Source: Natronolimnobius baerhuensis (GTDB lineage Archaea; Halobacteriota; Halobacteria; Halobacteriales; Natrialbaceae). From it: a stretch of DNA of 64,000 bases. The position numbers and the translations under genes are program-made. The notes beneath the pieces were generated by a model that was not told the origin of the DNA, did no database searches, and was given only the letters and a program-made list of their open reading frames with translations. The stretch spans positions 124,001 to 188,000 of the forward strand of contig NZ_MWPH01000003.1 in NCBI RefSeq assembly GCF_002177135.1, given 5' to 3'. How positions within the stretch are numbered: the first letter of the stretch is position 1; each line of letters begins with the position of its first letter. Shown here one piece after another: positions 8,002 to 10,906 of this stretch.

Positions 8002-8139
8002 GGGTTTCTCAGCCGACGCGGTCGTGGTCTCGCCCCACTGCATCGAGACGCGTGAGAGACGAGTCGGCAGGGATAGACGCATAGAGGAGGCTGATGCTGA
8101 AAGGGTTGACGTACTTGATCGACACCAAAGTGTCTCTCG

Positions 8140-8907
8140 TTACTCGTACTTCCAGACTCGCTCGGTCTCCACCCGGTCGTCACCATCCGATTCGAATACG
8201 TCGAATTCGAACAGATAGATGTCGCCTTCGTGGAGTTTGACCGCGAGCGTTCGGACGGCGTCAGGATACCGCTCCTTGTTCTCGATGCCTCGAGTGTTTC
8301 GAATCAACTGATTACGGTTCAGCGTCTCCCCCTCTCCCTTCGCTTCGACTGCGAGTGCGTAATGGTCCCCAGCGTCGTCGACGCCCACAGAGAGGTCGTC
8401 AAGTTCGGCCTCGCGACCGCGCACCCGGAATCGGAGGTGACTAGTCAGGTGATAGCACTCGAGTCCAGTGAAGTCGTCAAGTAGTCCAGCGTACCGCGTC
8501 TGGGTCAGTACACCCTGCTCATCGTCAGCGATGTACGGGCGAACAGCCTCGGGGAGCGCTGAGAGGCTCGTCTGGTGTGTCTCGTCGACAACCTCCGGGA
8601 CAGCGATGAGCTGGTTTCGCTTCGTGAACAGATATGTCGGGTCCTCTCCCTCGCGAGTATCGTCGATAATGACGGCAGAGTAGCCGTGTTGAGACACCGT
8701 CTCGGGAAGCGGTCGGCGCGACCGATACGCGTATGGAATGTCGGGAACGTTCCCGACGCTGATATCGAGTTCGTCCATCGCAGCCTCGAGATCATCTCGA
8801 TGAAACGGGATGTCTTCGTCGAGGGCCGACCCCTCGATTTCGTCGTCCAGTGCTGCGACCCGCTGTTTGAAGACCCATTCAATGATGCGCCGATATTTGC
8901 CTGCCAT
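8140..8907 (-). CDS. Putative Type II restriction endonuclease, PD-(D/E)XK fold
   Basis: This 255-residue protein has the core ELDDLSVGVD...VEAKGEG, giving the candidate active site D171-x16-E188-x-K190, followed by Q200 in LNRNQLIRNTRG. That is the D...E-x-K...Q arrangement of PD-(D/E)XK nucleases. The N-terminus (MAGKYRRIIEWVFKQR) resembles uncharacterised restriction-like endonucleases. The likely role is double-strand cleavage of DNA that lacks the mark made by the methyltransferase at 9548. It is downstream of a winged-helix gene on the same strand, 125 bases away, with its own AT-rich promoter. The region is visibly less GC-rich than its neighbours, consistent with transfer. The recognition sequence cannot be deduced. 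Confidence 0.72.
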   Translation of the reverse strand: MAGKYRRIIEWVFKQRVAALDDEIEGSALDEDIPFHRDDLEAAMDELDISVGNVPDIPYAYRSRRPLPETVSQHGYSAVIIDDTREGEDPTYLFTKRNQLIAVPEVVDETHQTSLSALPEAVRPYIADDEQGVLTQTRYAGLLDDFTGLECYHLTSHLRFRVRGREAELDDLSVGVDDAGDHYALAVEAKGEGETLNRNQLIRNTRGIENKERYPDAVRTLAVKLHEGDIYLFEFDVFESDGDDRVETERVWKYE

Positions 8908-8953
8908 TGTCCACGTTGCTCTCGGAGGGACGAGTGAATGTATCGACCATTAG

Positions 8954-8966
8954 ATATTTATTAAAA
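8954..8966 (-). promoter_or_regulatory. TATA-like promoter of the nuclease gene
   Basis: On the minus strand this reads TTTTAATAAATAT, a strong archaeal TATA-like element about 47-59 bases before the nuclease ATG at 8907. It suggests that the nuclease can be transcribed separately from the winged-helix gene upstream. Confidence 0.45.
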
Positions 8967-9032
8967 GGTATTCGTCTGGTATCTAAGCAGACATTCGATA
9001 TACTACCGACACACCCAACGGCTACAGGTCAC

Positions 9033-9371
9033 TCAGTCCTGTGGGAGGGCCGGTTCGCGGAGAGAAAATTCGTAGTCCCCATCTTTCACTATCTCGAGCG
9101 TGAGCGTCCTTCCATTCCCTGCTAATTCGAATTCCTTTCGAGGGCGTTTGTACGGGCCTTGGACACTCTTTGATTCAAGAAATCCTGCGCTCTCTAAGAT
9201 ATTTAGGTGGTACAGAATAGACTCCCCAGAGATAGCGAACTCATCTTTCTCTGCAAGGTCGGGTGCGGCGACCGGGCCATCTACTGCATACTCGAGAATA
9301 CGGAGGCGCTTCTCGTCCGCGATTTTATCCAATACTGCCGCTTGCTCTGCAAAACTCATCTCCTCAGCCAT
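9033..9371 (-). CDS. Winged-helix (ArsR-like) regulator, possible controller of the restriction-modification locus
   Basis: This 112-residue protein has an ArsR/HTH-20-like fold: KIADEKRLRILEYAVDG (helices 1-2), then a recognition region SGESILYHLNILESAGFLESK and a wing (GPYKRPRKEFELAGNGR). No metal-binding cysteine pair is present, so it is not a classical metal sensor. It lies upstream of the nuclease on the same strand and is divergent from the methyltransferase, the position held by C (controller) genes in many Type II systems. A role in timing nuclease expression is inference from position. Classical C proteins are small HTH proteins of the Xre/lambda-repressor type, so a winged helix would be a substitute. 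The start could be Met5. Confidence 0.7.
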   Translation of the reverse strand: MAEEMSFAEQAAVLDKIADEKRLRILEYAVDGPVAAPDLAEKDEFAISGESILYHLNILESAGFLESKSVQGPYKRPRKEFELAGNGRTLTLEIVKDGDYEFSLREPALPQD

Positions 9372-9547
9372 TACTAAAATATCTTACTAGGCTTCCGGAT
9401 AGTCTCTTCTTCAAAATCGAAAGGTTACTTAGATGTGTATCGAAAGGCTCTATAGATATTAGATAGGTATACAAACCGTTCCCCGTCCGAAACAAAAAAG
9501 ACCTAACCCTAAGCCATGCCACGAGAGAATACAGGACGACACCGAAT
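9372..9547. promoter_or_regulatory. Divergent promoter region of the restriction-modification locus
   Basis: This 176-base gap lies between the winged-helix gene (leftward) and the methyltransferase (rightward). It is AT-rich, with TATA-like runs near 9373-9385 (leftward) and 9451-9465 (TATAGATATTAGATA, rightward). A 14-codon frame starting at 9516 ends inside the methyltransferase start and could be a leader, but it may be chance. Confidence 0.4.
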
Positions 9548-10906
9548 ATGGAGCATATGAGCAATGTCGCTCGTCTCTCGGACACGAGCATCCACGACTG
9601 GTATCGCCACGTCTTCGCATACAGCGACCAGATAATCGTCGACCTCGTGAACGAGTTTGAGATTGAAGACGACGACGTCATTCTCGACCCGTTCAACGGG
9701 ACGGGGACGACCACGCTGACGGCAAAGCGCCTCGGCATCGATTCTATTGGGGTTGACGCGAACCCGGTGGCCGTCCTTGCCGGGCAAGTCAAAACCACGT
9801 GGGACATCGACCTCGAGGAGTTCACACAGCGACGAAACGACTTGTTAGGGACGGTTGAACCCGTTTTCGATAGGATCAGTGCAGAGGGGAACGTAACTCT
9901 CGATTCGTACACGGACACGGGCAGTGACGAGACGGCCGTCTCTCTTGACCAGTATGACTTTACAGAACCCGAGAAGACGCCGAAAGACTGGCTCAGTGAG
10001 AAGCCACTGAAGAAGATGCTCGTGCTCCGGCACCACGTCGACGAGATGCCGGCCGACGAGATTACGGACATCTTCCGGCTCGCGATGCTTGCCATTTTAC
10101 CGGAAGATGTCGCGAACATCGGGTTCGGCCCCGAGGCGTACAAGGTCTCGATGCAAGACGACGTGGATGTCTACACGACGTATCGAACGAAACTCGACGC
10201 CATCGAGCGAGACCTCCGGACGACCCAGGACGCACTCGAGGATGGGATGGCCGTCGGTGAGACAGAACATCTCGGTGGTGATGCTCGCAAGGTTGGAGAG
10301 ATTCTTCAGGAAGAGTCGACGCTCCTCAACACGGACAAACACGAGGGCGAAATTGACTATCTCATTACGTCGCCGCCGTACCCTGCTGAACACGACTATA
10401 CCCGCAACCAGCGCCTCGAGCTCATATGGATGGGCGTCCTCGAGGACAACAGCGATCTGCAGAAGATCAAGAAGACGAACATCCGGTCGAACACGAAGAA
10501 CATCTACGTGGATGACGACGACGCCAAACAGACGAATATCCGAGAGAACGAGCGCATTGACACCATCGTCACTCGGATGGAGCAAATCATCGAAGAAGAG
10601 GACATTCAACACGGGTTCGGCCAATACTACCCGCGAGTCGTTGCGGAGTATTTCGCGGGAATGCTACGACACTTCGAGCAGGTATACGACATCATGGCTC
10701 CCGGTGGAAAGGCCTGTTACGTCGTCGCGGACTCGGGGTCGTACTGGCAGGTTCCCATTGAGACGGGAGAAATTCTCGAGGAACTCGCGGAGAGCCGAGT
10801 CGGATTCGTCGAGACGGAGATCCTGCCATGGCGGAAAGTTCACGCCACGACTGGTTCACACGACGGATTGGATGAGGAAATTCTCGTTCTGACGAAACCT
10901 GAGTAG
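9548..10906 (+). CDS. DNA methyltransferase, probable N4-cytosine type, of a Type II restriction-modification system
   Basis: This 452-residue protein has the SAM-binding motif I DPFNGTGTT (residues 47-55) and the catalytic motif IV TSPPY (274-278). SPPY rather than DPPY is typical of N4-cytosine enzymes. Motif I precedes motif IV, with about 220 residues between them that should hold the target-recognition region, an alpha-like motif order. C-terminal motifs (MAPGGKACYVVADS) complete the Rossmann fold. It should protect host DNA against the nuclease at 8140, from which it is divergently transcribed. ATGs at 9548 and 9557 are both possible starts. The target base is inferred, not seen. Confidence 0.85.
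   Translation: MEHMSNVARLSDTSIHDWYRHVFAYSDQIIVDLVNEFEIEDDDVILDPFNGTGTTTLTAKRLGIDSIGVDANPVAVLAGQVKTTWDIDLEEFTQRRNDLLGTVEPVFDRISAEGNVTLDSYTDTGSDETAVSLDQYDFTEPEKTPKDWLSEKPLKKMLVLRHHVDEMPADEITDIFRLAMLAILPEDVANIGFGPEAYKVSMQDDVDVYTTYRTKLDAIERDLRTTQDALEDGMAVGETEHLGGDARKVGEILQEESTLLNTDKHEGEIDYLITSPPYPAEHDYTRNQRLELIWMGVLEDNSDLQKIKKTNIRSNTKNIYVDDDDAKQTNIRENERIDTIVTRMEQIIEEEDIQHGFGQYYPRVVAEYFAGMLRHFEQVYDIMAPGGKACYVVADSGSYWQVPIETGEILEELAESRVGFVETEILPWRKVHATTGSHDGLDEEILVLTKPE

What the first reader, a model, noticed from the sequence alone, without database searches (positions are those of the whole stretch)
8140..10906. Compact restriction-modification locus with a winged-helix gene in the controller position
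A PD-(D/E)XK protein (D171, E188, K190, Q200) and an SPPY-type DNA methyltransferase are encoded divergently. A small ArsR-like protein without metal-binding cysteines lies immediately upstream of the nuclease. In classical C-controlled Type II systems the controller is an Xre-like HTH; here the position is taken by a winged helix. The cassette is lower in GC than its neighbours and sits between housekeeping genes, so it was probably acquired.
Basis: partly seen in the sequence, partly recalled or inferred. Interest (0 to 1): 0.68.

Follow-up and report, generated by a model that had tools for sequence, protein, structure and literature searches.

The report
Archaeal restriction system with dedicated winged-helix regulator
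This is a mobile DNA-cutting defence cassette in a salt-loving archaeon, in which the switch that probably delays the cutting enzyme until the host DNA is protected is a different kind of DNA-binding protein (a winged helix) from the one known in bacteria, and it comes with its own conserved binding sites.

Summary
8140-8907(-) encodes a Type II restriction endonuclease-like protein (PADLOC REase_II, 2e-31). 9548-10906(+) encodes an SPPY amino-methyltransferase. 9033-9371(-) encodes an ArsR-fold winged helix (wHTH) without cysteines. In public genomes 77 of the 80 best nuclease loci lie beside a methyltransferase: 43 beside this type, 34 beside an unrelated m5C type. All 73 non-haloarchaeal ones are in the same direction and lack the wHTH. 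Seven haloarchaeal cassettes (window plus six; two nearly identical) are divergent and carry it.

The wHTH is part of the unit. In 384 Halobacteriales genomes its profile hits only the six cassette genomes, and its distances track those of the nuclease (Mantel r 0.93). A 19-bp motif found de novo occurs in both intergenic gaps of all seven cassettes, 74-78 nt before the nuclease start in all seven and 73-76 nt before the wHTH start in five. The host genome has no other near-exact copy. The cassette is inserted between rrmJ and a DUF7127 gene that are adjacent in a relative.

Best reading: a Type II restriction-modification system with a dedicated autoregulatory wHTH that works like a C protein but is not an Xre-family C protein. 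Activation versus repression, and the recognition sequence, remain unknown.

The parts
8140..8907 (-). Type II restriction endonuclease (R), 255 aa; N-terminal part resembling a winged helix (model residues 1-97), C-terminal PD-(D/E)XK nuclease domain (129-255) with D170, E188-x-K190, Q200
   Evidence: PADLOC REase_II PDLC03404 E 2e-31; 42-sequence alignment; AlphaFold2 model pLDDT 89.9, structural matches to NucS/EndoMS and Hjc nucleases; adjacent methyltransferase in 77/80 relatives
9033..9371 (-). winged-helix (ArsR-fold, no Cys) regulator, 112 aa, first gene of the wHTH-R pair
   Evidence: Pfam HTH_20 2.3e-6; profile matches Pyrococcus Phr 2p4w 1.8e-8; model HHHHEEEE with 2p4w as best Foldseek hit; strict co-occurrence with the cassette
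9548..10906 (+). DNA methyltransferase (M), 452 aa, motif I DPFxGTGT (47-54) before motif IV TSPPY (274-278): alpha-type order, probably m4C
   Evidence: Pfam N6_N4_Mtase 2.8e-12; PADLOC MTase_II 8.2e-37; alignment
8981..8999 (-). putative wHTH operator at the nuclease promoter, ATCGAATGTCTGCTTAGAT, about 75 nt upstream of the R start
9416..9434 (+). putative wHTH operator, copy 1, between the divergent M and wHTH genes, ATCGAAAGGTTACTTAGAT
9439..9457 (+). putative wHTH operator, copy 2, 23 bp from copy 1, ATCGAAAGGCTCTATAGAT; overlaps the site aligned with the other cassettes (76 nt upstream of the wHTH start)
8949..8965 (-). A+T-rich TATA-like element between the operator and the R start
   Evidence: read from the sequence; a similar element lies about 20-26 bp past the operator in the other six cassettes; not tested statistically

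Best explanation
A self-contained, horizontally acquired Type II restriction-modification cassette. M methylates the host's recognition sites (probably as N4-methylcytosine) and R cuts unmethylated invading DNA; shown: gene families, motifs, linkage. The winged-helix protein is a dedicated autoregulator that binds 19-bp sites in front of its own gene and in front of R; shown: conserved sites and spacing; inferred: that the wHTH is what binds them. It therefore couples R expression to its own build-up. Because the sites sit just upstream of TATA-like elements (clearest at R), the likeliest logic is activation of wHTH and R (a delayed positive loop, as in C-protein systems), with the divergent M promoter active from the start; this last step is inference, and repression is not excluded.
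For: R family: PADLOC REase_II 2e-31, M: MTase_II 8e-37. R-M linkage in 77/80 best genome loci and 22/23 viral-contig loci. Nuclease domain with ordered D170, E188-K190 strands. The wHTH is present in all seven haloarchaeal cassettes and nowhere else in 384 Halobacteriales genomes at E<=1e-8, and absent from 73 other loci (upstream ORFs also scanned). Distances of wHTH and R correlate at r 0.93 (1 of 5040 permutations). The de novo motif is in all 14 gaps; leave-one-out scans rank the two gap sites first and second in the whole locus in five of seven cassettes. Spacing to the R start is 74-78 nt in 7/7, and to the wHTH start 73-76 in 5/7 and 63-65 in 2/7. Only three copies with fewer than two mismatches exist in the 3.9 Mb host genome. 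Empty site in a relative.
Against: No binding, expression, cleavage or methylation data. In the window itself the cross-species motif is weak: with the window left out of the model, one gap site ranks third in 64 kb and the nuclease-side site is not in the top seven; the window case rests mainly on its own internal repeats. The wHTH model is only moderate (pLDDT 70). M distances correlate less well with those of the wHTH (r 0.66), so M may have been exchanged at least once. Position of an operator alone does not decide activation or repression.
Confidence: 0.8

Rival explanations
1. Same Type II cassette, but the wHTH is an autorepressor that keeps R (and perhaps M) low, like many ArsR-family repressors, rather than a delayed activator.
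For: ArsR-fold regulators and the closest structural relative, Phr of Pyrococcus, are mostly repressors (established knowledge). In L042 the site overlaps a TATA-like CTATAAAG. The site between M and wHTH could block either promoter.
Against: The sites lie upstream of, not on, the TATA-like element of R in all seven cassettes (read); a repressor of R alone does not give the delay that a new R-M cassette needs.
Confidence: 0.35
2. The wHTH is a passenger or a regulator of other host genes, and its place between M and R is incidental.
For: Small ArsR-like genes are common in haloarchaea (general knowledge; weaker paralogues exist in this genome).
Against: Family found only in cassettes; shared evolution with R; sites confined to the cassette in the host genome; cassettes sit in different genomic contexts yet keep the wHTH.
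Confidence: 0.05
3. The nuclease is not a restriction enzyme but another PD-(D/E)XK protein, for example a repair or modification-dependent nuclease, next to an orphan methyltransferase.
For: Best structural matches are to repair nucleases NucS/EndoMS and Hjc at middling Z 7-8; position 188 is E in haloarchaea but Q in the four bacterial homologues aligned.
Against: Persistent pairing with two unrelated methyltransferase families, typical of cognate R-M pairs, some with a Vsr gene; PADLOC REase model hit.
Confidence: 0.05

Closest known systems
C-protein-controlled Type II systems (PvuII, BamHI, Esp1396I, Csp231I; reviewed in PMC12707154)
   Same: Small DNA-binding protein gene directly before R; M divergent in many of them; binding sites upstream of the regulator's own promoter; sites sometimes duplicated; regulator inherited with R
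   Different: C proteins are Xre-type HTH; here an ArsR-fold winged helix. Here R has its own gap with its own operator instead of only read-through from the C promoter
Kpn2I (PMC6237814)
   Same: Divergent M, separate R promoter, small regulator
   Different: C.Kpn2I is Xre-like, binds inside its own gene and leaves the R promoter unaffected; here a site precedes R
Type II systems of the same R family in bacteria (PADLOC PDLC03404; Klebsiella/Salmonella ColRNAI plasmids, Paracoccus, cyanobacteria, Chloroflexota)
   Same: Homologous R (about 29-39% identity), about half with the same M family (29-38%)
   Different: M and R in the same direction, no wHTH, and in 34 of 80 an unrelated m5C methyltransferase instead
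Phr, heat-shock regulator of Pyrococcus furiosus (2p4w), and Csa3 CRISPR regulators
   Same: Closest structural and profile relatives of the wHTH
   Different: Phr is longer (about 200 aa) and acts on heat-shock genes; Csa3 carries a CARF domain; neither is known as an R-M regulator (from general knowledge)

Membership tests
Type II restriction-modification system | separate R and M genes, closely linked | tested here: met
Type II restriction-modification system | R cleaves a defined site protected by M | not testable with these tools
   no activity data; recognition sequence unknown
PD-(D/E)XK nuclease superfamily | D and (D/E)xK on consecutive strands of a conserved core | tested here: met
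   D170 invariant and K190 nearly invariant in 42 sequences, on strands 165-176 and 182-190 of a pLDDT 90 model; position 188 is E here, Q in bacterial homologues
PD-(D/E)XK nuclease superfamily | fold match to solved members | tested here: inconclusive
   most top rows for residues 114-255 are PD-(D/E)XK enzymes but Z is 5-8
N6/N4 amino-methyltransferase, alpha-type order | motif I (DPFxGTGT) before motif IV (SPPY) | tested here: met
N4-cytosine (m4C) methyltransferase | product is m4C | not testable with these tools
   SPPY is typical of m4C enzymes, but no methylome is available
ArsR-fold winged helix | winged-helix core of HTH_20/ArsR type | tested here: met
ArsR/SmtB metalloregulator | metal-binding cysteines | tested here: not met
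   no Cys in any of seven members; below the NCBIfam metalloregulator cut-off
C (controller) protein of Type II systems | Xre-type HTH protein | tested here: not met
   winged helix instead
C (controller) protein of Type II systems | gene before R, with own conserved operator upstream | tested here: met
   (sites are sequence predictions)
C (controller) protein of Type II systems | activates its own and R transcription | not testable with these tools
   needs expression data

The most novel reading that the evidence does not exclude
Haloarchaeal Type II systems evolved a second, non-homologous kind of controller: a winged-helix autoactivator with its own operator code that replaces Xre C proteins and reproduces the delayed-R circuit on an archaeal TBP/TFB promoter.
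Probability: 0.5. Interest if true: 0.65.

Novelty: new variant of a known kind. Interest (0 to 1): 0.5.

Why it matters
R-M systems must delay their nuclease in a new host; the known dedicated regulators for this are bacterial Xre-like C proteins. A winged-helix regulator with conserved operators in mobile archaeal cassettes would show that the same circuit was invented twice on a different transcription machinery, and gives exact DNA sites on which to test it. It also offers a small, possibly orthogonal regulator and operator pair for haloarchaeal genetics.

Tried and rejected
Sequence search of the R profile in the PDB gave nothing, as did phmmer. Foldseek alone gave no match below 0.001 for R. 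No R homologue in the phage collection. [quoted passage not shown] marismortui enzyme would lie if that plasmid is held, listed no Haloarcula or Haloferax record. Paper searches for a winged-helix or ArsR controller of a Type II system found none; the open-access library is incomplete. A wHTH relative upstream of bacterial M genes was looked for and not found. The idea that the shared site is a terminator of the wHTH gene was dropped because it also occurs between M and wHTH. A tally script stopped with an error in its second half; the viral-contig count is taken instead.

Full report
OBSERVATION. The 8140-8907 protein matches the PADLOC Type II restriction enzyme model PDLC03404 over almost its whole length (E 2e-31), and the 9548-10906 protein matches Type II methyltransferase models (best 8e-37) and Pfam N6_N4_Mtase. 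The 9033-9371 protein matches Pfam HTH_20 and, as a six-member profile, the Pyrococcus Phr structure 2p4w at 1.8e-8. The cassette has GC 0.546 against 0.614 for the window.

THE NUCLEASE. A 42-member alignment shows invariant D170, A189 and Q200 and nearly invariant K190. Position 188 is E in the haloarchaea but Q in the four bacterial plasmid homologues aligned. The AlphaFold2 model (pLDDT 89.9) places D170 and E188-x-K190 on consecutive strands followed by a helix with Q200. Residues 129-255 align with NucS/EndoMS, Hjc and other PD-(D/E)XK enzymes at Z 5-8, and residues 1-97 with the DNA-binding domain of Fur at Z about 6. These Z values are middling and are offered as support, not proof.

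LINKAGE. In the GTDB contig collection at least 479 places encode a relative. Of the 80 best, 43 lie beside a methyltransferase of the window's type, 34 beside an unrelated m5C methyltransferase (often with a Vsr gene) and 3 beside neither, two of these three cut by a contig end. All 73 non-haloarchaeal loci with M have M and R in the same direction and no wHTH; the four haloarchaeal ones in this set have M divergent and the wHTH. In 22 of 23 viral contigs R lies beside the m5C type. So R is a true partner of modification enzymes and has been combined with two unrelated ones.

THE wHTH BELONGS TO THE CASSETTE. Six further haloarchaeal cassettes were found besides the window: L038 to L042 and L070, Natrinema hispanicum. 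Those that could be named lie in Halomicroarcula, Haloplanus, Halarchaeum and Natrinema; all have the same order. L038 and L070 are nearly identical, so there are about six independent cases. A search of 384 Halobacteriales genomes with the wHTH profile hits exactly the six cassette genomes at E<=1e-8, at the cassettes. Identity matrices of R and wHTH agree (Mantel r 0.93, 1 of 5040 permutations); M agrees less (0.70 with R, 0.66 with wHTH), which points to an exchange of M, for example in L042. No member has a cysteine.

OPERATORS. Comparing the two gaps of each locus gave matches above shuffled sequence in most loci (clearest in L040, L041 and L042, weaker in the window and L039, absent in L038 and L070), and an unsupervised repeat search found 19-29-bp pairs across the two gaps in the window, L039, L040, L041 and L042. 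A 19-bp motif found de novo (ATCGAG..TCT..AAAG in one orientation) is present in all 14 gaps. With each locus left out of the model in turn, the two best sites in the entire 10.7-11.5 kb locus are the two gap sites in five cases and ranks 1 and 3 in L039. In the window, one gap site ranks third in 64 kb and the other is not in the top seven. In the window the evidence is its own three copies: 9416-9434 and 9439-9457 in direct repeat 23 bp apart, and 8981-8999 inverted, 79% alike in the repeat search. A pattern made from these three finds no further copy with 0 or 1 mismatch in the 3.9 Mb genome; because the pattern was derived from them, this shows absence elsewhere rather than significance. 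Spacing from the site to the R start codon is 74-78 nt in all seven, and to the wHTH start 73-76 nt in five and 63-65 in two. A TATA-like stretch follows the site by roughly 20-26 bp at R in all seven (read by eye); at the wHTH promoter it is clear only in some. A terminator would not explain the copy between M and wHTH.

ACQUISITION. The same-genus relative G001 matches the window at 87% DNA identity up to position 8123, 17 bp beyond the R stop codon, and then diverges. In the same-family genome G005, rrmJ and the DUF7127 gene are direct divergent neighbours 266 bp apart, whereas the window has the cassette between them. The other cassettes have none of these flanking genes.

MECHANISM. Shown: families, motifs, linkage, co-inheritance, shared sites with fixed geometry, insertion. 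Inferred: M protects host DNA (probably m4C), R cuts unprotected DNA, the wHTH binds the 19-bp sites and couples its own expression to that of R. Sites placed upstream of TATA-like elements suit an archaeal activator, hence a delayed positive loop, but autorepression remains possible (about one in three).

COMPARISON. It works like a C-controlled Type II system but fails the Xre-fold criterion for a C protein. Papers read here describe C proteins, methyltransferase-borne HTH domains, antisense RNA and promoter methylation as controls (PMC12707154, PMC6237814); no winged-helix controller was found in the open-access library. I therefore call it a new variant of a known kind.

Noticed in passing
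L062:3995-4267 (Halococcus dombrowskii plasmid); L003, L005: Stand-alone proteins of about 90 aa that match only residues 4-97 of the nuclease, the part that resembles a Fur-type winged helix; possible free domain or remnant.
   Followed up: partly
L063:4034-4339 (Haloarcula taiwanensis plasmid pNYT1); L019, L020: Stand-alone proteins of about 100-120 aa that match only the C-terminal nuclease domain (residues 156-254, 42%), without a full methyltransferase partner.
   Followed up: partly
L043 and L046 (genome G127): Short pieces of the nuclease (residues 130-180, one with a stop) and of the methyltransferase (323-360, 76%) on different contigs: probably a decayed cassette.
   Followed up: no
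Haloarcula virus HJTV-2, NC_062755.1 32124-33299: A haloarchaeal virus carries a distant relative (24%) of the cassette methyltransferase, annotated N4-cytosine methyltransferase; possibly anti-restriction.
   Followed up: no
window 9516: An upstream ATG near the position of the start used by other cassette methyltransferases is out of frame here (followed by a stop), so the window enzyme appears to start at 9548 with a shorter N-terminus.
   Followed up: partly
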